Shown: piece after piece, positions 28,161 to 43,884 of the stretch
Layout of the letters: each line of letters opens with the position of its first letter
Numbering within the stretch: the stretch's first letter is position 1
Assembly: GCF_030064895.1 (NCBI RefSeq)
Contig: NZ_JASJEB010000003.1
Span: 1 to 64,000, forward strand
Source of the DNA: Crocosphaera sp.
GTDB taxonomy: Bacteria; Cyanobacteriota; Cyanobacteriia; Cyanobacteriales; Microcystaceae
Direction: 5' to 3'
Length of the DNA stretch: 64,000 bases
Translations under genes and position numbers: made by a program
Notes under the pieces: model-generated
What the model was told of the DNA's origin: nothing
What the model saw: the letters and a program-made list of their open reading frames with translations, nothing else
Database searches by the model: none

Positions 28161-29630
28161 TTAAACCAAATATTGCCATAACCACACCACCAATACACCT
28201 AAACCTAGTCCCCCGAAAGAAGTTGTAGTTACAATAAAAAATGTCTGTACTTTTGAGAAATATCTGTTAAGTTTAGGAGCAGAATTCAAATCATTGAACA
28301 GGAACATACCGAACATCAAGGGAGGAAGTAAGAAAACATAAGGGAAATTCTGAGGTTCAATAACTGCACAGAATACCAAGATACTCCAGATAATAAGTAA
28401 AGTGATTGTATTAAAATTAGAATCAAGTTCTCTATCTGATTCAAAGGATAAACAGCTAAAAAACATAGTTATTATACCAACTATAATCCAACCCCATAAA
28501 GGACTAGAAACCATTAATAAAGCGATAGCAATACAAATAAAATTGAGTGACAAAGGAAGTAATGACAACCAAGGATTGCTATTTATTAATTCACAAAATA
28601 TTCTTATCTTTGATTTTGGTTTAGAAACTGGAGACGATTTACGCTTCTTATTCAAAGATTTACGTCTAGGAGATATCTGCTTAGGAGGAGTTTGAATAAC
28701 CGTTGGTTTTGTTGTAACTTTAGGAGGATATAATTTTCTTTCAATCTTCTCTAATTCTTGTAAAATAACTGTTGTATTTGCTGGTCTATTTTTCACTAAA
28801 CGCTGCATTAATTGATCAATAAAATTCTTTAATAATGGATCAATATTCGGTGCTGCATACTGCCAGTTTAAAGTATCGGTATGAGCATCATAAAATTCCC
28901 CAAGAGGTTGCTTAGTTAATAAATGAACAAAAGTTCTTCCCAGTGCAAAAAAGTCTGATTGAGGCACAGGACAACCATTTTGCTGTTCCGTTGGGGTATA
29001 GTTTGTGGAATCAATACCAATCGTTCCTGGTTTTCCTGCTTCAGCTTTTGCCATGTAAGTAACAGTTGCTTCCTTAACCGTTCCAAAATCAATTAAAGCT
29101 AACCTACCATTAGGTTTTAGCATAATATTAGAGGGTTTAATATCTCGGTGAAAAAACTGCTCTTGATGCACAACTTGTAATATTTCTGTTAATTCCTTGA
29201 GCCAGTTTAAAGCAACTCTTTGATTAATGGGTTGTTGCCGTTTATTTAACCAAGTTTCTAAATCTTCTCCCTCTATTTTCTCCATAATTAAACAATGGAT
29301 AGGTTTTTGACTATCTCTAGCAAAATAGCTAAAATAACCATCACTTTCTACGTGAGGAATCCCAGGATGATTCAGTTTTTTTAATACCTCTGCTTCTTGC
29401 TCAAACAATCTTAAAGCATCGGGATCTTCTAACTTTAAAATCTTCAGGACTTTTTCAAAATTTTGGTGGTTATCTCTAACAAGATAAGTAACCCCAAAAC
29501 CCCCTTCTCCTAGTTTCTTGGAAGCACGATACAAACCTTCTAATAGTAATTCTGAGCCACAATTTCGACACTCTAAATTATGGTCAGAGTTTTCGGGTTG
29601 AGTGCATTTAGGATTAATACATAAAGTCAT
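28161..29630 (-). CDS. Ser/Thr protein kinase with Cys-motif N-terminus and membrane tail
   Basis: 489 residues from ATG 29630 (seven codons earlier is another ATG). N-terminal cysteine motif CxxxxC..CxxC (CINPKC and CRNCGSE), as in SpkB-type cyanobacterial kinases. Kinase domain about 28-300: GEGGFGVTYLV loop, VLKILK lysine, HRDIKPSN catalytic loop, DFGTVKE metal motif. A Pro/Lys/Ser-rich linker (about 305-345) leads to four or five membrane segments (about 350-489). Probably a membrane-anchored redox- or metal-sensitive kinase; substrate unknown. Confidence 0.85.
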   Translation of the reverse strand: MTLCINPKCTQPENSDHNLECRNCGSELLLEGLYRASKKLGEGGFGVTYLVRDNHQNFEKVLKILKLEDPDALRLFEQEAEVLKKLNHPGIPHVESDGYFSYFARDSQKPIHCLIMEKIEGEDLETWLNKRQQPINQRVALNWLKELTEILQVVHQEQFFHRDIKPSNIMLKPNGRLALIDFGTVKEATVTYMAKAEAGKPGTIGIDSTNYTPTEQQNGCPVPQSDFFALGRTFVHLLTKQPLGEFYDAHTDTLNWQYAAPNIDPLLKNFIDQLMQRLVKNRPANTTVILQELEKIERKLYPPKVTTKPTVIQTPPKQISPRRKSLNKKRKSSPVSKPKSKIRIFCELINSNPWLSLLPLSLNFICIAIALLMVSSPLWGWIIVGIITMFFSCLSFESDRELDSNFNTITLLIIWSILVFCAVIEPQNFPYVFLLPPLMFGMFLFNDLNSAPKLNRYFSKVQTFFIVTTTSFGGLGLGVLVVWLWQYLV

Positions 29631-30111
29631 GACAGCATCAATATCAAACAAAAATTTACCTTAATATTAGAATAATTTTTCTGAAATTGCTATAAAAATA
29701 TCTGTTACAATTCCTTGCTTTTCTTGACTTGACATGATATTATAAGGACAGTGGAAAAGGCGCGCGCTTATCACCTCAGTTCTCAACTATGGGATGCTCT
29801 GTTTTGTTTTTCCAGACAATTTGTCAAAAATTGATTGTATTCTATATTGATGTAGTGCAAGCATCTTGCTTGCTGTTGTTAACTGTTGTTAAGGAGATTC
29901 CTGGTACATCGAAATGACATTTAACAGCAGTTTTCTTATATATAGATTAAACATTTACATTTCAAAACTCCCCACACTTCCCATCCCTCCCACACTCCTC
30001 ACACTCACTCAACCCAAATATTAATACACTCAATTGAAAACTGCTATAAGGGCTTTGTTTGCAGAACTCTGTGATGATAGGATAACAAAGGCAAGGAATT
30101 AGTATAAATAT
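29631..30111. other. Gene-free interval upstream of pdhB
   Basis: The 480 bp between the divergent kinase and pdhB genes contain no convincing ORF. I see short pyrimidine-rich runs (about 29965-30010) but no strong hairpin; promoters for both flanking genes must lie here. Confidence 0.4.
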
Positions 30112-33881: not shown

Positions 33882-35174
33882 ATGAACATTGCAGTGGTGG
33901 GCCTCAGTCACAAAACTGCCCCAGTTGAAGTCCGAGAAAAATTAAGTATTCAAGAGGCTAAAATAGAAGAAGCCTTACACCATTTAAAGGGTTATCCTCA
34001 TATTGAGGAAGTCGCTGTCATTAGCACCTGTAACCGTTTAGAAATTTATGCGGTGGTGACAGACACAGAAAAGGGTGTGGTAGAAATTACTCAATTTTTA
34101 TCGGAAACCGGTCACATTTCCCTAACCTATCTCCGTCGCTATTTATTTACCCTGCTTCATCAAGACGCAGTACGTCATCTGTTAAGGGTGGCCGCTGGTT
34201 TGGAAAGTTTAGTCTTAGGGGAAGGGCAAATTTTAGCCCAGGTGAAAACCACCCATAAATTATCCCAAAAGTACAAAAGTATTAGCAGATTACTAGATCG
34301 CCTCTTTAAACAAGCAATCACAGCAGGAAAACGGGTGCGCAGTGAAACTAATATTGGCACCGGTGCGGTATCCATTAGTTCGGCTGCGGTAGAATTAGCT
34401 GTAACCAAAGTGGATGACCTAGCTTCCCGTAACATTAGTATTATTGGTGCAGGGAAAATGGCTTGTTTACTGGTGAAGCATCTTGTGGCCAAAGGAGCGA
34501 CTTCTATCACCGTTGTTAACCGTTCCCAGCGTCGTGCCGAGGAGTTAGCCAAAAAATTCCCTCAAGCTGAGTTAACCCTGGTTTCTTTGGATGAGATGAT
34601 GACGGTTGTGGGTAACTCTCATATGGTGTTTACTAGCACGGGAGCAACCCAACCTATCTTACATCAAGACAACCTTAAAGAAGTGGTATCCGTTGAACAA
34701 GGGTTAATGTTATTTGATATCTCTGTGCCTCGAAATGTGGCTACAAACGTCCAAGATATGGAAATGGTAGAAGCTTATAATGTGGATGATTTAAAGGCTG
34801 TGGTGGCGCAAAATCATGCTAGTCGTCGTCAGATGGCTTTAGAGGCGGAAGGGTTACTAGAAGAGGAAGTGGAAGCGTTTGAGTTGTGGTGGCGTTCTTT
34901 GGAGACGGTTCCTACTATTAGCTGTTTGAGAACGAAAGTAGAGGGTATTCGTGAACAAGAATTAGAAAAAGCCTTATCCCGTTTAGGAACGGAATTTGCT
35001 GAGAAACACCAAGAGGTGATTGAAGCTTTAACCAGAGGTATTGTTAACAAAATATTACACGAACCGATGGTACAACTACGGGCCCAACAAGATATAGAGG
35101 CAAGACAGAAATGTTTACAGTCTTTACAAATGTTGTTTGACCTTGAAATTGAAATTGAAAAACAATTTGGTTAA
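33882..35174 (+). CDS. hemA: Glutamyl-tRNA reductase
   Basis: 430 residues. The catalytic Cys50 lies in [10 protein letters not shown], and the N-terminus [20 protein letters not shown] and the NADPH-binding motif [13 protein letters not shown] (about 187) identify the enzyme. It reduces glutamyl-tRNA(Glu) to glutamate-1-semialdehyde, the committed step of heme and chlorophyll synthesis by the C5 route. An AGGAG ribosome-binding site sits seven bases before the start. A strong hairpin follows the stop, and the candidate modification island begins 65 bp downstream. Confidence 0.95.
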
Positions 35175-35181
35175 AATAATC

Positions 35182-35212
35182 TGACCCCTCAACTCCAGAA
35201 GTTGGGGGGTCA
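35182..35212 (+). terminator. Strong hairpin after hemA
   Basis: TGACCCCTCAACT and AGTTGGGGGGTCA (35182-35194, 35200-35212) pair over 13 bp with one wobble around a 5-nt loop. There is no long T tract, but its position right after the stop favours termination. It also marks the junction with the downstream island. Confidence 0.6.
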
Positions 35213-35239: not shown

Positions 35240-37396
35240 ATGTCCTATCCGCGCGTTTTAGTGGTAACAAACTGTACAGGAGAAAAGCGATTTAAACCCA
35301 AAAATAAGCTTCAACTGTCAGATTTTCAGGATTCTCAATTATTAATATCTCGTTCAAAACAGTTGAGTGAGTTTGCTTGTTGTGCAGGGGAAATGTACAC
35401 AGGTGCGCAACATTTACGTTTGATGGAAGGGCTTAATTTGTTGCGTGAAGTAGGAAAGGAAAAGAATAATAATTGTGATATTACAATAGATTTAGCCATT
35501 ATTTCGGCTGGATATGGCTTAATTGATGAGTATAAAATGATTGTCCCTTATGAAGCTACTTTTAACACAATGAAGGGACAAGAGTTGGATGAATGGGCGC
35601 AATTTTTAGGGATTCATGACGCTTTTGAGCAGCTAATTGCTGATTATGATTTGATTTTTATCTTATTAAGTGAAAATTATTTACGTGCGCTTAACTTACC
35701 TGTTAAAACCAACTCTAATCAGACGTTTATTTTCTTAGCAAGTTGGGGAAGTAGTGAGTATATTAAAATCAATTTTAGTCAACATTTTGTCCTTCCTTTG
35801 TCTAATGCAGAAGCCAAACATTATGGTTACGGATTAGTGGGTTTAAAAGGATTTTTGTTTAAACAATTTGCTCAAACCGTAACACAAGATATTCAATTAA
35901 TTATTAAACTTTTCAAAAGTCCTGAATTATTTAAAGAAGTAATTAATAGATTAGTTGAACAGAAAGAAAGTTATTCAGTGCCATTAAACTTACCTTTTAT
36001 TGATGGTAACAATAAACTAAAAAAGCAACGATCTGAGCTATCGGAGGTTATTCCTCTTCCTTCAATTCCTCCTGCAGCTAATTATCATCATGGAATGAAG
36101 TATTTTATTCCAGAATGGGACGATTATGTTGACCCCAATTTTGATTTTATTCAAGATCAATTTACACCTAATAGAATTCCTCACAAAGATGATTTTTATG
36201 CTCATCAACTGTTTGAATCTCCTAATTACGATGGGATTCTAGTGTCTAAAGTCGTTTTTGACAAAAGCAAAAAAAAACAAAAAGCAATACTACAACAAGG
36301 AATTCATGATTATATTCGTTTCTCTGGAGAAATTATAGGAGATTGTGGGGCTTTTGGATACATTAAACAAGAATTTCCTCCTTATACCACCGAAGAAATT
36401 TTAGACTATTATCAACAATGTGGGTTTAATTATGGGGTTAGTATTGATCATTTAATTGTTGGTAAATTTGCTGAAAAGGGTATTAGAGAAAAACGCTATG
36501 ACTTAACAATAAAAAATGCTGAAGAATTCTTGACAAAACACTCACAATATGGGTATAAATTTACCCCAGTAGGGGCAATTCAAGGGTGGAACCCTCAAAC
36601 TTATGCTGAAGCTGCAAAAGCTTATATAAAAATGGGTTATACTTATTTAGCTGTGGGAGGAGTAGCGAGAGAAAAAATAGAGAAAATTATTGATATTTTA
36701 CTGGCGATTTATCCTTATTTAACACCAGATATCAAACTTCATTTATTTGGGGTAGGAAGACTAAATGCAGTTCCGATTTTTCGTCATTTAGGTGTTACTA
36801 GCTTTGATTCTGCTAGTCCTTTAAGAAAAGCTTGGTTAAGTCCAGAAGCCAACTATCATGGAGTTAATCATAATGTTTATGCAGCTATTAGAATTCCTCA
36901 AGCGAATCATAGGAATAAAAAGATTAAAGAGTTAATTCAATTTGATTGCAAAAGTTATCTAAGCAATTCTATTATTTATTTATTTATTATCACTAGCTTT
37001 TGGAAGTGGGAAATCATTCAAATTCTTGAACAAGAAGCTTTAAAAGTGTTAAGAGATTTTGATGAAAATCAAGCTTATATTGATCTGACTCTAGAAACAG
37101 TTTTAACTTATAATCAGTTATTTGTAAAAGATAGATTATTGCCTAAGTATAGATTCATGTATAAAATACTTTTAGAAGATAAACCTTGGAAAGACTGTGA
37201 TTGTGTAATTTGTCAAAGTTTAGGCGTTGATACTTTAATCTTTAGAGGAAATGACCGTAACCGTCGCCGAGGTTTTCATAATACTTATATGTTTTATAAA
37301 CGATTTAAAGCTTTACTTGAAGAAATGGACTTAAGAGAATTCAATCATAAAAAAATTAGTAATAAGAGTCAAGAAGAAATGATAAAAATAGCTTAA
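35240..37396 (+). CDS. DpdA-like tRNA-guanine transglycosylase family protein with DUF6884-like N-terminus
   Basis: 718 residues. The N-terminal domain (about 1-200: VVTNCTGEKRF, SAGYGLIDEYKMIVPYEATF) resembles DUF6884. A TGT-like barrel follows (about 285-600: SGEIIGDCGAFGYIKQ with an Asp near 368, FTPVGAIQGWN, YLAVGGV, SFDSASPLRKAW with an Asp near 522). The C-terminal zinc site is CDCVIC at 653-658 with His680 (C-x-C-x2-C-x21-H). TGT enzymes exchange guanine for a 7-deazaguanine in tRNA; DpdA proteins do this in DNA, inserting preQ0-derived bases. The zinc site and the island context (second TGT-like gene, DGQHR gene, helicase, nuclease) favour a DpdA role. No preQ0 synthesis genes are present here. 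DNA as substrate is inferred; an RNA substrate cannot be excluded. Confidence 0.75.
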   Translation: MSYPRVLVVTNCTGEKRFKPKNKLQLSDFQDSQLLISRSKQLSEFACCAGEMYTGAQHLRLMEGLNLLREVGKEKNNNCDITIDLAIISAGYGLIDEYKMIVPYEATFNTMKGQELDEWAQFLGIHDAFEQLIADYDLIFILLSENYLRALNLPVKTNSNQTFIFLASWGSSEYIKINFSQHFVLPLSNAEAKHYGYGLVGLKGFLFKQFAQTVTQDIQLIIKLFKSPELFKEVINRLVEQKESYSVPLNLPFIDGNNKLKKQRSELSEVIPLPSIPPAANYHHGMKYFIPEWDDYVDPNFDFIQDQFTPNRIPHKDDFYAHQLFESPNYDGILVSKVVFDKSKKKQKAILQQGIHDYIRFSGEIIGDCGAFGYIKQEFPPYTTEEILDYYQQCGFNYGVSIDHLIVGKFAEKGIREKRYDLTIKNAEEFLTKHSQYGYKFTPVGAIQGWNPQTYAEAAKAYIKMGYTYLAVGGVAREKIEKIIDILLAIYPYLTPDIKLHLFGVGRLNAVPIFRHLGVTSFDSASPLRKAWLSPEANYHGVNHNVYAAIRIPQANHRNKKIKELIQFDCKSYLSNSIIYLFIITSFWKWEIIQILEQEALKVLRDFDENQAYIDLTLETVLTYNQLFVKDRLLPKYRFMYKILLEDKPWKDCDCVICQSLGVDTLIFRGNDRNRRRGFHNTYMFYKRFKALLEEMDLREFNHKKISNKSQEEMIKIA

Positions 37397-37458
37397 TTTT
37401 TTGATAAGGTTTAATTTATTCGTCTTTTTTCTATTTGATAGTATTATTTTTTATCAAC

Positions 37459-38328
37459 ATGAATAATCATTTTCTTCCTGTCTTTTCTCTAGATTGGATA
37501 AAACGCCTAGAACAACTAAATACTCTTGAAGGAGATTATGGCATACTTGCTCCTTTTTCTTGTTATGATAAGCTGTTGGATAAAATTAGGAATTTTGATC
37601 AACCTTTTTTGATAGATAGTGGAGTTTTTGAGAAGCATAATAAGTCTTTATATTATCAACTGAATTGTGAGTTTAAGCATGAACAATGGATCCGAAAATT
37701 TAACTTAGCTAGTGAAAATAAATTACGCAAAATTATACACAACTATTTGAAACGATGTAACTCTTTTTCTCCTGATTTTGTTTTTGCTCCTGATATTATA
37801 GGAGAACCTTTGATTTCCCTCTATTTAGCAAGACTAAGTTGGGATGAATATTGGAAAGAACATAGGAACTATCATTTAATTGGTGTTGTTCAAATGGGAG
37901 CAATACTTTATAATTGGAAAGAAAAATCTGTTCCTTCTCAAGATTCTTTCTTGCCTTATTATAACTCACCTAAAAGTTATCTTTCATCTTTAATTAGTGA
38001 GTATAAAAATATTGGTTATAAATATCTTGCTTTGGGTGGGTTACTCAAACTAGATAAAAGAAAGAGAACTCACTTAAAATTTGGGTTATCAGTTCAAGAA
38101 TTAGATAACTTATTAGCTTGGAGTCGACCCGATTTTGTTTTAGGAGGATTGGCTTTGAGTCGTTTAGAGGTGTTAAAAAAGCATAAAGTTTGGGCTGATT
38201 CTGCGGGGTGGTTTTGGTGGAATAGTTGCTATGAAAAAAGATTCAAAAACCGTAACGTCTTACAAGAAATCATCAATTTTGCCTCTCATTCGTCTTCAAT
38301 AAAACAAAACTCAACTTTTTTACTTTGA
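37459..38328 (+). CDS. Second TGT-like (DpdA-related) barrel protein
   Basis: 289 residues from ATG 37459 (a TTG at 37435 is in frame but less likely). It has barrel-type motifs in the order expected of transglycosylase relatives: FLIDSGVFEK, PDFVFAPDIIGEP, LIGVVQMGA, YKYLALGGLLKL, FVLGGLALSRL and WADSAGWFWW. It lacks the C-terminal CxCxxC zinc site and the N-terminal domain of the neighbour, which it follows by 62 bp. It may be a partner subunit, a second base-exchange enzyme or a degenerate paralogue. Pairing of two TGT-like genes in one operon is the odd feature. Catalytic competence cannot be decided by eye. Confidence 0.6.
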   Translation: MNNHFLPVFSLDWIKRLEQLNTLEGDYGILAPFSCYDKLLDKIRNFDQPFLIDSGVFEKHNKSLYYQLNCEFKHEQWIRKFNLASENKLRKIIHNYLKRCNSFSPDFVFAPDIIGEPLISLYLARLSWDEYWKEHRNYHLIGVVQMGAILYNWKEKSVPSQDSFLPYYNSPKSYLSSLISEYKNIGYKYLALGGLLKLDKRKRTHLKFGLSVQELDNLLAWSRPDFVLGGLALSRLEVLKKHKVWADSAGWFWWNSCYEKRFKNRNVLQEIINFASHSSSIKQNSTFLL

Positions 38329-38475
38329 CTTTAACTAACAAAAAAGTTGTTTCTTTCTCATATATTATAAATCTATGTCAGGAAAACTGATGAGATTTGC
38401 ATTAGGTACGGGTATGTTAAAATAAAGTATACTATTAGTAAATAGTTGATTTTAAACTGTTTCAAGGATAACTTT

Positions 38476-38736
38476 ATGAACACTCAATTAGTTGATTCAA
38501 TTACCCAGATAATTGAATGCTTAACCCCTGAAGAAAAAGACCTTTTAAAAGAAAAAATTAAGCCTATTCTGCAAGATAAGCACATCAAAAAACCGTCTCA
38601 TTTTCAAGAGAAAGCCTCTCCTCAAGAATGGAATAATGCTTTTCAAGAATGGATAGACAGTCATAGAAATAAGAATCTTCCGTGTCTTTCTGATGAAGCC
38701 ATTAGTCGAGAAAATATTTATGGAGAAAGAGGATAA
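38476..38736 (+). CDS. Antitoxin-like small protein, partner of PIN toxin
   Basis: 86 residues from ATG 38476, with AAGGA about eight bases upstream. The N-terminal half (SITQIIECLTPEEKDLLKEKI) is helical, as in DUF2281/VapB-type antitoxins of cyanobacteria; the C-terminal half is a polar tail likely to bind the toxin. The stop TAA is directly followed by the toxin start TTG, giving tight coupling. DNA-binding fold not identified, so the antitoxin role rests mainly on gene order. Confidence 0.65.
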   Translation: MNTQLVDSITQIIECLTPEEKDLLKEKIKPILQDKHIKKPSHFQEKASPQEWNNAFQEWIDSHRNKNLPCLSDEAISRENIYGERG

Positions 38737-39177
38737 TTGGCTTTTTTACTTGACACCAATATTCTATTACGAATGATTGATTTAGACCATCCGATGAATA
38801 AAGATGTTACTAATTCAATTAAAAGTTTGCGCTCACAAAATGAACAGCTTTTTATTATTTCTCAAAATCTGATTGAGTTTTGGAATGTTTGTACTCGCCC
38901 TCTAGAAAAAAATGGTTTAGGAATGACTGTTTCTGAAACTGAAGGAGAAGTTTCTCGAATAGAAAATATTTTTATTGTTCTTCCTGATACCTCGAAAATT
39001 TATCTTCAATGGCGAAATTTAGTCAAAAAATATCAAGTTAAAGGGGTGAAAGTTCATGATACACGCCTAGTTGCTGCTATGTTAGTTTATGAAATTGATA
39101 AAATTTTAACGTTTAATGTTAATGATTTTAGACGTTTTTCAGAAATTACAGCCATTCACCCAACAGATATAAGTTAA
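38737..39177 (+). CDS. PIN-domain RNase toxin (VapC-like)
   Basis: 146 residues starting at TTG 38737 immediately after the antitoxin stop. Acidic PIN residues are visible: Asp in FLLDTNILLR (about 6), Glu in NLIEFWNVC (about 48), Asp in VHDTRLVAA (about 109) and Asp in FNVNDFRRF (about 128). Such proteins cleave tRNA or rRNA when not neutralised. As a unit with the upstream gene this is a VapBC-type module, placed inside the island. Its 3' end overlaps the convergent DGQHR gene by 4 bp. Confidence 0.8.
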   Translation: MAFLLDTNILLRMIDLDHPMNKDVTNSIKSLRSQNEQLFIISQNLIEFWNVCTRPLEKNGLGMTVSETEGEVSRIENIFIVLPDTSKIYLQWRNLVKKYQVKGVKVHDTRLVAAMLVYEIDKILTFNVNDFRRFSEITAIHPTDIS

Positions 39178-40265
39178 ACCATAATTTCCATTATTCCCAC
39201 AAATTCCCGAAGCACTTTATGACAAGCTTTAACTGTAGTTTTTGTATTAGAAATAATCGGTTCTTCTGTTGCTCCTATCTGTATTACTCCTCGTTCTAAC
39301 CAAAATTTATTATCTCTTCGCCAATCCAATTTTTTTAAGTTTTTTAACCACTTTTCTAACTGTTCTGCTGGTACATCTTCTTGATATAAATCATGGGCTA
39401 ATAGTCCCAATGCTTGTAAAAAAACCGCACTAACTAATAAAGTTTCTTGTCTTTGTTGACTTCGTTCTTCTTTAGTCATCACTCGCCAAGGATTATTATC
39501 AAAAATGTTAGCCGATGCTATCCAAAAGCTTCTAGCCCAATTTATTTTTGCTTCTAAATTTTCCTGAGATTTGAGACTAGGAAACATATATTTTGTTGTT
39601 GTTACTAAGGTAGAAAGGGTCATTAATTTAGGATTATAATGACCTAAACCTGTTTCTATCATTTCAATATTATCTATAAATTGAGGAACCGTTTCTAGTA
39701 AATTCTTAGCCATTAAAACTGCCGGAGAACGTTGGTCAAAATAGTGAGATAAAGAAATACTCGGACGTTGAACTAATAAGTTTTGGTCACGAAATGCTTG
39801 ACGTTCCTCTTCTAAAGATAATCCTGAATATAACAATACACCGATTTCTAATTGAGACAAATGCTTAAATTTTATTGAATCTTTTTCTTGAATTTCTTTT
39901 AAAACTTGATAAATTCCAAAACAGCGATGCTGTCCATCGGTTAAACGTAAACTAACAGAATGATAGGGTAAAAAAAGTTTGCCTTCTTCATACCTTGGTT
40001 TTGGTTGAACATTAACACAAATGGGAGGAAAAAATATCATCCCCGTTTGATAATTTTCCAGAATATAAACAGCAATTTGTTTAACCCGTACTTTGTTAAG
40101 TTTCCGTTGGGCAAAATCTGGTAACTCAGGCTGATTAGGCACATATAAACGGTTATCATCGATTAATCGGGCAATATCTCCTAAAAAAAGGCTTCCCAAA
40201 TAGCTTATATGTTTATCTTGAGGACTACGACGCACAGAGACAGCATTAATAATAAGTTCCATCAT
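39174..40265 (-). CDS. DGQHR domain protein (DndB/DpdB-like)
   Basis: 363 residues with the signature LTDGQHR at 108-114. Proteins with DGQHR include DndB, which regulates DNA phosphorothioation genes, and DpdB, required with DpdA to make deazaguanine DNA. Other supporting segments: VRVKQIAVYILENYQTGMIFFPPI (partly quoted, DNA-binding-like) near 60-81, and FRDQNLLVQRP (about 159), a ParB/DGQHR-type pattern. It lies on the opposite strand to the other island genes, 90 bp from the start of the RHH-helicase-nuclease operon and convergent with the VapC gene. The shared divergent region holds a perfect palindrome. Confidence 0.7.
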   Translation of the reverse strand: MMELIINAVSVRRSPQDKHISYLGSLFLGDIARLIDDNRLYVPNQPELPDFAQRKLNKVRVKQIAVYILENYQTGMIFFPPICVNVQPKPRYEEGKLFLPYHSVSLRLTDGQHRCFGIYQVLKEIQEKDSIKFKHLSQLEIGVLLYSGLSLEEERQAFRDQNLLVQRPSISLSHYFDQRSPAVLMAKNLLETVPQFIDNIEMIETGLGHYNPKLMTLSTLVTTTKYMFPSLKSQENLEAKINWARSFWIASANIFDNNPWRVMTKEERSQQRQETLLVSAVFLQALGLLAHDLYQEDVPAEQLEKWLKNLKKLDWRRDNKFWLERGVIQIGATEEPIISNTKTTVKACHKVLREFVGIMEIMV

Positions 40266-40281
40266 TAAAATATCTTGTAAT

Positions 40282-40293
40282 CATGTATACATG
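40282..40293. promoter_or_regulatory. Perfect 12-bp palindrome in divergent promoter
   Basis: CATGTATACATG is self-complementary and lies in the 89-bp gap between the DGQHR gene and the RHH-like gene. Its place and symmetry suit an operator for a dimeric regulator, for instance the RHH-like protein encoded next to it. Confidence 0.5.
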
Positions 40294-40354
40294 GTAGCAG
40301 GTGTTAGGGGAAGCAGATTAGAATTACTAATGTTTTAGATTAAGTATTTTTATT

Positions 40355-40609
40355 TTGACCCCGACTATTCGAGTTCCCACTGAACTTTATCAAACCTTGC
40401 AAGAAATCAAGGTTTCTTTGGAAAGTGAGCATTTTTCCGCAGCACCCACCATGCAAGACTTAGTAAGCGTGTCTGTCAAGCGTTTTATCCGAGATTGGAA
40501 TAACCCAAAGCAGCAGAAAGAGATTATTGAGGAATTATTAAAGAATCGTCAAGATTCTCGCTCAAAAATGGGGAGACCGAAAAGTGATAATAGTGAGAAG
40601 GGAAGATAA
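40355..40609 (+). CDS. Small ribbon-helix-helix-like protein
   Basis: 84 residues from TTG 40355; no in-frame ATG is available. The pattern TIRVPTELYQTLQEI then a second helix PTMQDLVSVSVKRFIRDW is strand-helix-helix, as in RHH repressors and antitoxins. The C-terminus is basic (RSKMGRPKSDNSEKGR). The stop overlaps the helicase start by one base (TAATG), so translation is coupled. It could autoregulate the operon through the nearby palindrome or act as an accessory subunit. RHH assignment is by pattern only. Confidence 0.5.
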   Translation: MTPTIRVPTELYQTLQEIKVSLESEHFSAAPTMQDLVSVSVKRFIRDWNNPKQQKEIIEELLKNRQDSRSKMGRPKSDNSEKGR

Positions 40610-42849
40610 TGATAGATATTCAGACTTTTCATAGTTGTTTAGCTCAAACTACTGCACGAGGCTATGACTTAGACGATAATCAAAAAAAAGCAGTAGAATA
40701 TGGAGATGGTCAATTGTGGCTTTTAGCTGGCCCTGGCTCTGGAAAAAGTGAAGTCCTGGTAACACGAACCTTAAAGTTACTTTGTGTAGATAATATTGAG
40801 CCTAAATCAATTTTTCTGACAACTTTTACAGAAAAAGCAGCAAGAAACCTTGAGGATCGTTTAGCAACATATCTTGCAGTCTTACAAAACACGGATTCTG
40901 ACATCAAAGATGTTGATATAGCTGATATTAGAATAGGAACACTACATAGTTTATGCAATGATATTCTACAAGAATACCGCTATCCAAATTACCAAAATGT
41001 TCGTCTTTTAGACAAAGTCGAACAAGATTTATTCACTTATCGTTATTCTGATATTTCAAAACATGAAGATTTAGATTTTTGGATACATTTTGATTATGTC
41101 GTAAAAACATGGAAAAAGCCAAAGAATCAAAAACCAAAGTATCCACCAAATAAATGGCAACGAGCTAAAGCAGGAGTTACACTTTTTAATCATATTGTAG
41201 AAGATTATCTTGATATAGATAGAATGCTTAATGCAGGTGAACATTGGGAAACTTTAGCAGAACTATATCAACAATATTCTCAAGCATTAAAAGATAATTA
41301 CCGTTGCGACTTTGCTCATCTTCAAGCTTACTTTCTTGAATTTCTTAAGTCTCCTGCTAGTCGACAGTTTTTAGAAGGAGATTACCAAAATCCTCCTTTA
41401 AAGTATATATTAGTCGATGAATATCAAGATACTAATCCAATTCAAGAACGTATTTATTTAGCTCTCGCTCATCAAAAACCCCATAATATTACTGTAGTTG
41501 GAGATGATGACCAAGCACTATATCGTTTTCGAGGTGGCAATGTTACTTGTATGGTTAATTTTGATAAAGCCTGTCAAGAGATATTTAATCAAACTCCTCA
41601 TCAACTTCAGCTAGAAAATAACTACCGTTCTCATCCTGATATTGTTAACTTTTTCAATCACTATATCACTTCATTTGCAGAAATGAATGTTTCAGGAGTT
41701 CGTGCGCCGAACAAGCAACCAATTATCGCTGCTTCATCTATTTCTGGTAATTATCCTGCTGTTTCTTGGATTCAAACCAAAAACGTAGGAGATTTAGCTA
41801 ATTCCGTTGCTCAATTTATTCATAATCATTTGATAAGTGATGGTATTATCAAGGATCTCAGTCAATGTGTTTTATTACTACGAAGTGCTAAAGATTCACC
41901 TAGAAATGCTGGCCCATTTATTCAAGCATTTCAGAACTTAGGAATCCCTATTTATAATCCTCGTTCTAAGTCTTTTATGGATAGTGGAGAAGTTAAGTGT
42001 TTACTAGCAGCACTAATTCAAGTGATTGATAAAAATCATAGTTTTCAATCAAAAAAAGATCCAAAAGGAAAGCCTTTATCTTGGGTTACACCTATTCAAG
42101 AATGGTTTGCTACTTTAGATCACATAAGAAATGACTCTAATATATCTACTAATTCTCTAGATGACTACTTAAAAAAGAGCAACACAAAACTATCAGAAGT
42201 ATGTAAAAATAGCTCATCCCAAGATAATCCAGGACGATTTCTTAAACTAAACTTACTAGAAATTATCTATCGGATTCTAGCACAAGAGCCATTTTTAACA
42301 TGGAGACAAGATCCTGTTAGGAACTTACGTCTTTCTAAAGTCACTCGTTTATTTGAAGGCTACAATAGTTTTAATTTAGATTCTTTGCGAGCCAATTATA
42401 CAGGTACTGAAATTGATTCAAGCTTTCTTAATCGTTTTTATAATATGTTTGTTAGCTACTTAATTGAAGCAGGAATTGATGAAGATGAAGATGATGAGGT
42501 TATTGTTCCTGAAGGTTCTCTGCCAATTATGACAATTCATCAATCAAAAGGATTAGAGTTTCCTTTCGTATTCGTTGTAACTAAGTTAGGTAGAGAAGGA
42601 CAAGTCGGAGCAGCACAACAACTTGAGCAAACTTTAGCTCCATTTAGACAGAATCTTTATCCAAGAGTGACTAGAACTCCTGAAGATTTAGCCATAGAAG
42701 ATGATATTCGCTTGCTTTATGTAGCTTATTCTCGCGCACAGTATGGTCTAATTTTAATAGGAACAAAGACGCAGATTAAAAGCCATATTGCTGTTCCTAA
42801 TCGAGATCATTTAGAATTTCAACGAAACACAGATGCTCTTATTATATAA
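40609..42849 (+). CDS. UvrD/Rep-type superfamily 1 helicase
   Basis: 746 residues. Helicase motifs in order: Q-like DDNQKKAVEYG, motif I AGPGSGKSE (about 40), motif Ia LTTFTEKAA, motif II LVDEYQDTNP (about 272), motif III VVGDDDQALYRFRGG, motif IV NNYRSHP, motif V TIHQSKGLEF (about 645) and motif VI LLYVAYSRAQ (about 705). It is a 3'-5' DNA translocase of the UvrD/PcrA class. Sequence of the middle (about 450-600) is less typical and may be a specificity insertion. Coupled to the RHH-like gene upstream and followed after 15 bp by a Cas4/RecB-like nuclease, as in AddAB-like helicase-nuclease pairs. Confidence 0.9.
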   Translation: MIDIQTFHSCLAQTTARGYDLDDNQKKAVEYGDGQLWLLAGPGSGKSEVLVTRTLKLLCVDNIEPKSIFLTTFTEKAARNLEDRLATYLAVLQNTDSDIKDVDIADIRIGTLHSLCNDILQEYRYPNYQNVRLLDKVEQDLFTYRYSDISKHEDLDFWIHFDYVVKTWKKPKNQKPKYPPNKWQRAKAGVTLFNHIVEDYLDIDRMLNAGEHWETLAELYQQYSQALKDNYRCDFAHLQAYFLEFLKSPASRQFLEGDYQNPPLKYILVDEYQDTNPIQERIYLALAHQKPHNITVVGDDDQALYRFRGGNVTCMVNFDKACQEIFNQTPHQLQLENNYRSHPDIVNFFNHYITSFAEMNVSGVRAPNKQPIIAASSISGNYPAVSWIQTKNVGDLANSVAQFIHNHLISDGIIKDLSQCVLLLRSAKDSPRNAGPFIQAFQNLGIPIYNPRSKSFMDSGEVKCLLAALIQVIDKNHSFQSKKDPKGKPLSWVTPIQEWFATLDHIRNDSNISTNSLDDYLKKSNTKLSEVCKNSSSQDNPGRFLKLNLLEIIYRILAQEPFLTWRQDPVRNLRLSKVTRLFEGYNSFNLDSLRANYTGTEIDSSFLNRFYNMFVSYLIEAGIDEDEDDEVIVPEGSLPIMTIHQSKGLEFPFVFVVTKLGREGQVGAAQQLEQTLAPFRQNLYPRVTRTPEDLAIEDDIRLLYVAYSRAQYGLILIGTKTQIKSHIAVPNRDHLEFQRNTDALII

Positions 42850-42864
42850 ATAAAGGTAAAATTA

Positions 42865-43884
42865 ATGACAATAAATAAAAGAAAACCTTTTGAAAATATT
42901 TCAATTCCTTCACCTAATATTCCTAATATTAAACGGCGTTACAGTGTGACTCAAGATATTGTCTCATTTAGACGTTGCCCTCGTCAATACGGAACTTTTA
43001 ATGTCCATAAATATGCACCTGCTTATCAAAATCAGACTTATTTTGGGACTATTCTTCACCAAGTTTTAGATCGTTGTCATACTCATTTTCATGGAAAAAT
43101 AGATCCTTCAACAAAAGGTTCTCTACCGGATAATAGGAAAATTCTCAGTGATCAAGAAATTCTTGAATATTTTAATGATTTGCAAAAGGCTGAAACAGAA
43201 AAAAACAAAAAACCAATTCCTCCCAGTAAAATCATTCAATATTTTATTGAAGTTGACAATGGATTAAAAAGTCAAGGTATTAGAAATATCCCACAAGAGA
43301 CAAGATTAAAAGCAGTTAGACTACTTCAATATTTTAATGCTCTTGAAGGATCAACACTGTATCCAAGGGTTAAAGATACAGAACATAGATTACAAGCAGA
43401 TCGTACTGATCATATTCTTCATGGAGTAGTTGATCTTCTTGTTGATTCAGAAAATTTAGAAGCTAATCCTGCTGATTGTGAAATGTGGGACTACAAAGGT
43501 AGTAGCTTGTTAGGTGTTAATACTAAAGACCTAGAAAACTATGAATTTCAAATGCGAGTTTATGCAAAACTGTATGAACTAAAACATGGTGTTTTCCCTC
43601 GAAAAGCTATTTTATATTTTTTGAATGAACTTGATGGTTCAACTTGTCCATCTCAACGACCAAAAAATGCTCTCTTAGAAGTTAGTATTACTTCTAATGA
43701 AATTGATGATGCTGTTAAGGAATTTGCAACAACTGTATTAAAAATTGAAGAAGCGCGTTTGAATGATCAATGGAATCCAGCAACTCCTGGAGATATTAGT
43801 GAAAAAGATTGTACTATTTGTGATCTTCGTTGGGATTGTAAAACTCCCAATAATGGACAAGGAGTCAAACTACGATATCCGTAA
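42865..43884 (+). CDS. Cas4/RecB-like PD-(D/E)xK nuclease with Fe-S cysteines
   Basis: 339 residues. Nuclease core: FGTILHQVLDR (about 66, H of the RecB motif), HGVVDLLVDSE (GxxD, about 193), EMWDYKGS (D-x-K, about 207) and ENYEFQMRVYAKLYEL (QxxxY, about 228). Cysteines fit an Fe-S cluster of the Cas4/AddB type: one in FRRCPRQYG (about 39) and three in DCTICDLRWDC near the C-terminus. It starts 15 bp after the helicase gene. Together they probably act as a helicase-nuclease. No cas1, cas2 or CRISPR array is nearby, so it is not a CRISPR adaptation gene. Confidence 0.85.
   Translation: MTINKRKPFENISIPSPNIPNIKRRYSVTQDIVSFRRCPRQYGTFNVHKYAPAYQNQTYFGTILHQVLDRCHTHFHGKIDPSTKGSLPDNRKILSDQEILEYFNDLQKAETEKNKKPIPPSKIIQYFIEVDNGLKSQGIRNIPQETRLKAVRLLQYFNALEGSTLYPRVKDTEHRLQADRTDHILHGVVDLLVDSENLEANPADCEMWDYKGSSLLGVNTKDLENYEFQMRVYAKLYELKHGVFPRKAILYFLNELDGSTCPSQRPKNALLEVSITSNEIDDAVKEFATTVLKIEEARLNDQWNPATPGDISEKDCTICDLRWDCKTPNNGQGVKLRYP

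What the first reader, a model, noticed from the sequence alone, without database searches (positions are those of the whole stretch)
35240..43884. Candidate 7-deazaguanine DNA-modification or defence island
Seen: between hemA and a cupin gene lie a TGT-like protein with an intact zinc site (CxCxxC..H), a second TGT-like protein, a VapBC-type pair, a DGQHR protein, a small RHH-like protein, a UvrD helicase and a Cas4/RecB-like Fe-S nuclease. Known: DpdA (a TGT relative) with DpdB (a DGQHR/DndB-like protein) makes 7-deazaguanine bases in DNA, and the modification is linked to restriction. Inferred: this is a compact modification-restriction unit with a helicase-nuclease as the attack arm. The known dpdC-K genes are not recognisable here, so the layout may be a new variant.
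Basis: partly seen in the sequence, partly recalled or inferred. Interest (0 to 1): 0.8.

Follow-up and report, generated by a model that had tools for sequence, protein, structure and literature searches.

The report
Compact DNA base-marking defence island
A small gene cluster, probably from a cyanobacterium, looks like a DNA-marking defence system that swaps guanine for an unusual base, but its marking enzymes are paired with a different helicase-nuclease pair from the usual one, which suggests that the attack parts are interchangeable.

Summary
35240-43884 encodes a DNA-type transglycosylase (DpdA), a second small TGT-like protein, a VapBC-like pair, a DGQHR protein, a small RHH-like protein, a UvrD helicase and a Cas4/RecB-like nuclease, between housekeeping genes. 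Two inferences need correcting: a DpdC-like domain is present, fused to the front of DpdA, and the DGQHR protein is of the DndB branch, not DpdB. DpdD and H have no match in the genome, DpdE and J only background scores; F, G, I, K are not on the contig. In relatives the same DpdC-DpdA core sits beside true DpdE/F/G/H or DpdJ/K, so this is a Dpd-type island with an exchanged restriction arm. The small TGT tracks DpdA: 6 of 7 DpdA-bearing genomes, 1 fragment in 379 others. A 27-bp imperfect palindrome plus RHH gene heads the effector slot in 9 islands; comparing two islands 87-91% alike shows UvrD-nuclease inserted before DpdJ with a duplicated element and RHH copy. The same pair sits beside DISARM elsewhere, so it is portable and need not read this mark. 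Island genes are under purifying selection. No biochemistry was possible. New variant of a known kind.

The parts
35240..37396 (+). DpdC-DpdA fusion (718 aa): residues ~1-240 DUF6884/DpdC-like (YaaA-type fold), ~286-691 DNA-guanine transglycosylase with Zn site
   Evidence: NF041059 453.9 bits; PADLOC DpdA 406 bits at 286-695, DpdC 2e-10 at 7-110; 7ui4 E 3e-85; YaaA 5caj Z 10.4, next 7.7
37459..38328 (+). second, small TGT-like protein (289 aa), no zinc site; D61, Q153, G201-G202, D255 (numbered from 37435) invariant in 8 aligned
38446..38736 (+). VapB-like antitoxin candidate (passenger)
   Evidence: position before a PIN gene; no family over cut-off
38737..39177 (+). VapC-type PIN toxin candidate (passenger; after the small TGT the G105 island has DpdE-F-G-H instead)
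   Evidence: PF01850 36.8 bits; island comparison
39174..40265 (-). DGQHR protein of the DndB branch; probable regulator or accessory NTPase
   Evidence: PF14072 268 bits; tree
40274..40300 (+). 27-bp imperfect palindrome, candidate operator of the effector cassette
   Evidence: found in 9 islands, twice in two near-copy islands; exact 16-mer once in the window; coordinates checked
40355..40609 (+). small RHH-like protein heading the effector operon; its stop overlaps the UvrD start (TAATG)
   Evidence: 7 aligned sequences, also in G105; overlap; no Pfam match over cut-off
40609..42849 (+). UvrD/SF1 helicase
   Evidence: PF00580 189.5 bits; 4 aligned
42865..43884 (+). PD-(D/E)XK RecB/Cas4-type nuclease with a candidate Fe-S cysteine set
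   Evidence: PF12705 50 bits; alignment

Best explanation
It is a compact Dpd-type modification-restriction island. Host-made preQ0 is exchanged for guanine in DNA by the DpdA domain, and the fused DpdC-like domain hydrolyses the nitrile to the amide (dADG); the small zinc-less TGT probably works with DpdA as a partner or specificity subunit. The DndB-branch protein and the RHH-like protein control a divergent promoter at the 27-bp element. UvrD plus the Fe-S-type nuclease, in the effector slot that DpdJ fills elsewhere, unwinds and degrades DNA that lacks the mark. Shown: gene identities, linkage, insertion of the pair at the slot in a relative, purifying selection. Inferred: the chemistry (from known DpdA and DpdC), the partner role of the small TGT, the operator role, the Fe-S cluster, and that the helicase-nuclease depends on the mark.
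For: DpdA identity and separation from the own tRNA TGT. DpdC-like domain; in a haloarchaeal island DpdA and a stand-alone 235-aa DpdC-like protein are neighbours, the latter 30% identical to the fused domain over 223 columns. QueC in the own genome, 245 bits. The same core beside DpdE/F/G (832, 739, 59 bits; L019) and DpdJ (528 bits; L017), DpdK, DpdH, DpdD. UvrD-nuclease in 9 of 15 DpdC-DpdA islands examined, three of the 9 near-identical and one pair ~33 kb from the core on the same contig; and near queC/folE/queE/queD/DpdA in a haloarchaeon. Insertion of element-RHH-UvrD-nuclease: L029 8984-13622 matches L017 8374-13013 (86.9%) and L029 17098-21194 matches L017 12783-16867 (90.8%). dN/dS 0.16-0.29 for five island genes (NG86). 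G157 is a second island with only a UvrD-nuclease pair as arm.
Against: The pair also lives beside DISARM without DpdA nearby (L102) and beside DrmMI/DrmD-type genes in a genome without DpdA over cut-off (L062), so it need not depend on the deazaguanine mark. Two haloarchaeal plasmids that carry DpdA have a fused helicase-nuclease relative tens of kb away from it. No mark-reading domain was identified. In 6 of the 9 islands with the pair, DpdJ and/or DpdE-H is present too, so the pair may be an accessory. Nuclease linkage is weaker than that of the small TGT: 3 of 7 against 2 of 379 genomes. The DpdC profile covers only residues 5-155 at best, and the Foldseek TM to YaaA is low (0.34).
Confidence: 0.6

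Rival explanations
1. Marking island plus an independent nuclease-helicase defence: DpdC-DpdA and the small TGT mark DNA, while UvrD-nuclease is a stand-alone Gabija/AddAB-like cassette that does not read the mark and merely shares the regulatory slot.
For: The pair occurs beside DISARM and DrmMI/DrmD without DpdA; GajB-type PADLOC profiles hit the helicase; distant nuclease relatives (21-25% identity) sit on Enterococcus, Nitrosomonas and other plasmids (those contexts were not inspected).
Against: Same slot, element and RHH as DpdJ; recurrent Dpd linkage; two islands where it is the only candidate arm found.
Confidence: 0.25
2. A decaying Dpd island: DpdE-H and DpdJ were lost, vapBC moved in, and what remains is on its way out.
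For: The close relative G105 carries the fuller set; a congener has only a ~109-residue remnant of DpdC-DpdA; the G199 copy is split in two frames (L022).
Against: All window frames open; dN/dS 0.16-0.29 for marking and attack genes alike; G157 has a similarly reduced composition with a different helicase-nuclease pair (27-29% identical).
Confidence: 0.12
3. The TGT-like proteins modify tRNA or another RNA, not DNA.
For: TGT superfamily; the small TGT is too diverged to assign.
Against: DpdA profile and structure match far above tRNA TGT profiles; a separate 511-bit tRNA-type TGT in the genome; tree.
Confidence: 0.03

Closest known systems
Dpd system (dpdA-K; original papers recalled, not held; as described in passages of PMC11888242 and PMC12839542)
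   Same: DNA-type DpdA, DpdC-like domain, a DGQHR protein nearby, preQ0 genes beside several relatives, helicase plus nuclease genes
   Different: DpdC fused to DpdA; second zinc-less TGT; DndB-branch instead of DpdB-branch DGQHR protein; DpdD, E, H, J not found; UvrD plus Fe-S-type PD-(D/E)XK instead
BRIGADE (PMC12458937, passages seen)
   Same: Dpd-like marking with an alternative nuclease, sometimes PD-(D/E)xK
   Different: defined by YprA-family helicases and reported only from halophilic archaea; here the DpdJ profile finds only helicase background
Dnd/DndB (PMC4507180 abstract and outline; PMC10853773 passages)
   Same: DGQHR protein of the DndB branch next to a divergent promoter with a palindrome
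   Different: no dndC/D/E among the island genes; the element differs by eye from the published TACGN10CGTA motif
DISARM
   Same: the same UvrD-nuclease pair (67%) sits beside it in Nostoc N6
   Different: no Drm gene among the island genes or the ten flanking genes scanned with Pfam
BREX-related capture system with a TGT (PMC12839542, passages seen)
   Same: TGT in a defence context
   Different: PglZ/HerA-centred; that paper reports no DpdB or DpdC homologue in it

Membership tests
Dpd system | DNA-type DpdA over curated cut-off | tested here: met
   453.9 bits vs 200; 7ui4 E 3.3e-85; tree
Dpd system | zinc site and Asp motifs of DpdA | tested here: met
   aligned to 7ui4; kept in 10 of 10. 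Roles of the residues are recalled
Dpd system | DpdC | tested here: met
   as a fused N-terminal domain: PADLOC DpdC 2e-10, DUF6884 34 bits over cut-off 30, YaaA-type fold Z 10.4; partial profile cover
Dpd system | DpdB | tested here: not met
   no PADLOC DpdB hit for the DGQHR protein; blastp DndB E 1e-23 to 1e-26, DpdB at best 0.002, tree with DndB. PDLC02812 in 0 of 7 genomes, but no control rang either
Dpd system | restriction genes DpdD-K | tested here: not met
   no DpdH or DpdD match; DpdJ and DpdE only 28 and 54 bits; no F, G, I or K on the 102-kb contig; F, G, I, K not searched genome-wide
Dpd system | preQ0 supply | tested here: inconclusive
   QueC present; QueD, QueE, FolE not searched genome-wide
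Dpd system | dPreQ0/dADG in DNA | not testable with these tools
   needs LC-MS
BRIGADE | YprA-family helicase | tested here: not met
   tested only with the DpdJ profile: 28 bits in the own genome
DndB | NCBIfam DndB equivalog cut-off | tested here: not met
   122 bits vs 328; same branch but own clade of 9
Dnd system | dndC/D/E | not tested
   none among the island genes; the genome was not searched
tRNA TGT | tRNA-type TGT equivalog | tested here: not met
   TIGR00430 28 bits vs 306.75
TGT superfamily (small TGT) | TGT fold | tested here: inconclusive
   profile match to DpdA; no Pfam hit; model too poor, pLDDT 38.5
VapBC | PIN toxin with cognate antitoxin | tested here: inconclusive
   PIN over Pfam cut-off, TIGR00028 33.9 vs 73.6; antitoxin unassigned

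The most novel reading that the evidence does not exclude
The 27-bp element plus RHH gene is a docking slot into which complete effector modules (UvrD-nuclease, DpdJ, perhaps others) are exchanged or stacked behind one constant marking module, and the zinc-less second TGT is an obligate partner of DpdA that sets the target or strand, so that one deazaguanine mark is read by unrelated attack machines.
Probability: 0.3. Interest if true: 0.78.

Novelty: new variant of a known kind. Interest (0 to 1): 0.62.

Why it matters
If right, deazaguanine defence is modular: the marking enzymes stay, the attack arm is swapped. That gives a small, testable gene set for the open question of how Dpd restriction tells marked from unmarked DNA, which is hard to study in the eleven-gene system. 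The closely linked second TGT is a component not mentioned in the passages read here, and a single-chain DpdC-DpdA could be a practical tool for writing the base into DNA.

Tried and rejected
Structure of the small TGT: AlphaFold with 4 sequences gave pLDDT 38.5, not used; its TGT kinship rests on an 83-column profile match and motifs, and it was not placed in the tree. The DpdB model search rang nowhere, controls included, so it is not proof of absence; and carry that point. PADLOC helicase profiles cross-hit widely; DpdJ/DpdE scores of 28 and 54 bits in the own genome, and 27 and 82 bits in G157, were taken as background, a judgement. Both trees carry long-branch warnings; the DpdB rows and the island rows are among the long ones, and most deep forks are open and two of the five other second TGTs (L018, Paenibacillus) fall on the DpdA side, three on the tRNA TGT side. 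Only the splits named are used. dS: the contrast with hemA is clear by NG86 (0.42-0.55 against 1.57) but smaller by YN00 (0.64-0.97 for four genes, against 1.45; it failed for the nuclease), and hemA is one yardstick. Empty site: hemA homology ends at 35170-35176 in five congeners, but what follows there was not matched to the other flank. One search reports a stop inside the G376 nuclease match; one search shows an open 335-aa frame there, so the stop is probably outside the gene. VapBC as a core part: rejected. RHH: no Pfam support, kept as a pattern reading. Print: (listings) and the passages read showed no mention of the fusion, the second TGT or a UvrD arm, but key Dpd papers (Thiaville 2016, Gedara 2023, the 2024 review) are not held and Yuan 2018 was not looked up, so nothing is claimed about what is in print. 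L032 (short contig, gene in pieces) was dropped from island counts; flanks differ in length between islands, so island counts are lower bounds.
Full report
What is there. The window lies on a 102-kb contig (C20) of a 5.5-Mb draft genome in 188 contigs. The ten flanking genes scanned look like housekeeping: transketolase, SecD, SecF before; nucleoside transporter, DUF952, MscS channel, PEP-utilising enzyme, methyltransferase, transporter, FGGY kinase after.

The first protein is DpdC plus DpdA in one chain. Residues 286-691 match NCBIfam DpdA at 453.9 bits against a cut-off of 200 and the solved DNA-guanine transglycosylase 7ui4 (named as Salmonella DpdA in PMC12137116, passages) at E 3.3e-85, with the GDCGAF, FDSASP and CDCVIC...H stretches aligned. 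The tRNA-type TGT of the same genome is another gene, on contig 76, 511 bits, and a tree separates it from the window DpdA and nine other DpdA rows (96/99, with long-branch warnings). Residues 84-169 match DUF6884 over its cut-off, residues 7-110 a PADLOC DpdC profile at 2e-10. A model of the N-terminal 286 residues (pLDDT 78.9) has E. coli YaaA (DUF328) as best solved neighbour: Z 10.4 over 190 residues, next row 7.7. PMC12839542 calls DpdC DUF328 (passages) and PMC11888242 calls it DUF6884 (passages). In a Salinigranum plasmid the two halves are neighbouring genes, the small one 30% identical to the window's N-terminal domain over 223 columns; a Paenibacillus plasmid has the fusion at 41.5%. 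So 'dpdC not recognisable' is wrong.

The second TGT. The 289-residue protein has no Pfam match and only marginal DpdA hits. Eight orthologues keep IDSG/LDSD-type, VVQ, ALGGL and WADS stretches where DpdA has GDCG, IQG/AQG, GG and DS, but no zinc site. Profile against profile it matches DpdA (probability 87.8, E 3e-6, 83 columns), against 0.5 and 0.1 for the DGQHR and UvrD alignments. It could not be modelled. In 386 genomes drawn from the phylum, DpdA over cut-off occurs in 7; the small TGT occurs in 6 of these 7 and, as a 28-residue fragment, in 1 of the other 379 (Fisher 1e-11). In G027 it is about 35 kb from DpdA on the same contig. It has no match in the phage collection at E 0.01 and matches in two plasmid records, both with DpdC-DpdA. 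Several islands without it hold another TGT-like gene: Nostoc NIES-3756, Picosynechococcus and Pseudanabaena (60-69% identical to each other, no zinc site by eye), Paenibacillus and Salinigranum (with a zinc-type motif by eye). G199 (L022) showed neither in the stretch read. Two TGT-type proteins per island is thus recurrent, not universal.

The DGQHR protein. It matches PF14072 at 268 bits and PADLOC DndB at 134.5 bits but no DpdB model. Against reference proteins, DndB gives E 1e-23 to 1e-26 and DpdB at best 0.002; in a tree of 19 the nine island copies form a clade (98/98) on the side of three DndB proteins (100/100), apart from seven annotated DpdB proteins (long-branch warning). It stays under the NCBIfam DndB equivalog cut-off (122 vs 328). 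Published DndB is described as a transcriptional regulator (PMC4507180, abstract and outline), with other roles discussed in PMC10853773 (passages).

Islands compared. I examined 15 DpdC-DpdA loci of the window's phylum or of named cyanobacteria (window, L017-L022, L027-L031, L094-L096; L029-L031 are near copies, 95-98%) and one from Paenibacillus (L097); L032 was left out. Relatives carry known restriction genes beside the same core: DpdE, DpdF, DpdG in L019, DpdE in L021, DpdJ in L017; DpdK, DpdD, DpdH and a weak DpdI. Of 7 genomes searched each, DpdJ is clear in G027, G199, G185, G101, G105, DpdE in G027, G199, G105, DpdH in G105, G199, G027, DpdD in G199 and G027. The window's genome has no DpdD or DpdH match and only 28 and 54 bits for DpdJ and DpdE, which I take as helicase background; no Dpd restriction gene was found on the rest of the contig. 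G157 is alike (no DpdD or DpdH; 27 bits DpdJ, 82 bits DpdE): its island ends in a UvrD-nuclease pair only 28-29% identical to the window's, and its contig ends soon after.

The nearest relative, G105 (DpdC-DpdA 81-83% identical), carries DpdC-DpdA, small TGT, DpdE, F, G, H, then the DGQHR protein, the RHH-like protein, UvrD (84%), nuclease (86%) and a DpdJ-type helicase. The window lacks the DpdE-H block and DpdJ; the VapBC-like pair sits where DpdE-H would be. Between window and G105, dN/dS (NG86) is 0.16-0.29 for the five shared genes, with dS 0.42-0.55, against dS 1.57 for hemA; YN00 gives dS 0.64-0.97 for four of them (it failed for the nuclease) against 1.45. This shows purifying selection on marking and attack genes alike and suggests, on one yardstick gene, that the island moved as a unit after the hosts diverged. 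Of 9 genomes of the genus, 2 match DpdC-DpdA: the own one and G401, which has a remnant of about 109 residues at another place.

The effector slot. Between the divergent DGQHR and RHH-like genes lies a 27-bp imperfect palindrome (window 40274-40300), present in the window and eight other islands. The 10-base core CATGGTRGCA occurs 11 times in the nine loci scanned, each time in front of an RHH gene or RHH remnant (the remnant was read in L029, and inferred for its near copy L031). In a matrix scan of 24 loci (507 kb) true sites score 35-40; the other hits listed stay under 16, apart from overlapping reverse readings of the same sites (up to 28). The matrix was built from eight of these sites, so that scan is not independent. 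G027 has the DGQHR and small TGT genes but not the element, L022 has an RHH gene in front of DpdE without the element, and the DISARM-side pairs (L062, L102) lack it. The comparison of L029 with L017 is the most telling: they match at 87% to the end of RHH, then L029 has UvrD-nuclease plus a second element and a broken RHH copy, then both continue into DpdJ at 91%. So element-RHH-UvrD-nuclease behaves as a cassette stacked in front of DpdJ.

The helicase-nuclease pair is portable. It sits in 9 of the 15 islands (window, G185, G157, G105, G027, L029-L031, Picosynechococcus), in two diverged types, and 6 of these 9 also have DpdJ and/or DpdE-H. A 39.5% identical nuclease beside a helicase gene sits near queC, folE, queE, queD and DpdA in Halobaculum. 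But the pair is beside DISARM in Nostoc N6 (67%) and beside DrmMI and a DrmD/DpdE-type helicase in G376, without DpdA nearby; and in Salinigranum and Natronococcus a fused relative is far from DpdA on the same plasmid. In 386 genomes the nuclease profile hits 5: 3 of the 7 with DpdA and 2 of 379 others (Fisher 3.6e-5); it misses the diverged type in G157 and G027. This is why the independent-defence rival stays at 0.25.

Mechanism. Most likely the island writes a 7-deazaguanine mark with DpdC-DpdA and the small TGT, fed by host preQ0 (QueC present), and degrades unmarked DNA with UvrD-nuclease under control of the RHH-like and DndB-branch proteins. The chemistry is transferred from known DpdA and DpdC; the dependence of UvrD-nuclease on the mark, the operator function and the TGT partnership are inferred.

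Place among known systems. It meets some defining features of the Dpd system (DpdA, DpdC) and fails others (DpdB, and DpdD-K as far as searched), so I call it a Dpd-like variant, not a member of the canonical system. BRIGADE (PMC12458937, passages) already showed Dpd-like systems with other nucleases, built on YprA helicases in halophilic archaea; no such arm was found here. Whether the fusion, the second TGT or the UvrD arm has been described in papers not held is open.

Noticed in passing
L102 9773-13002; L062 7716-10976: UvrD plus PD-(D/E)XK pair beside DISARM or DrmMI/DrmD-type genes without DpdA nearby; in L062 an 81-aa HTH control-protein-like gene heads the pair.
   Followed up: partly
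L018 11329-12595: queC in the G185 island is spread over three short frames, so it looks broken; other supply was not checked.
   Followed up: no
L094 3831-5021 and L018 7106-8287: A ~395-aa protein family (56% identical) with no Pfam match, next to the small TGT in two islands.
   Followed up: partly
L095 12083-18450, L096 3141-9403: A third arrangement: DpdC-DpdA with two DEAD helicases around another TGT-like protein without a zinc site by eye, on plasmids of Nostoc and Picosynechococcus; Pseudanabaena (L028) has the same kind of TGT.
   Followed up: partly
window 36947-37018 (approx.): A 17-residue insertion in DpdA shared only with G105 among 10 aligned sequences.
   Followed up: no
window 35182-35212: GC-rich inverted repeat right after hemA, seen by eye, perhaps its terminator, just before the DpdC-DpdA start.
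   Followed up: no
L114 3988-4326: Remnant of DpdC-DpdA (about the first 109 residues) in a congener, at another place in the genome.
   Followed up: partly
L061 308-1932: In G199 the element and RHH-like gene head a 454-aa protein without a Pfam match: possibly another effector.
   Followed up: no
L029, L030, L031: Nearly identical Dpd islands (95-98% DNA identity) in Scytonema, Nostoc and Fortiea records, the first on a plasmid: recent transfer; a DrmD-type gene (954 bits) lies upstream in L029.
   Followed up: partly
window 28161-29651: Ser/Thr kinase-like protein with MAD6 and PglW defence kinases among its hits, all far under their cut-offs: probably an ordinary kinase.
   Followed up: no
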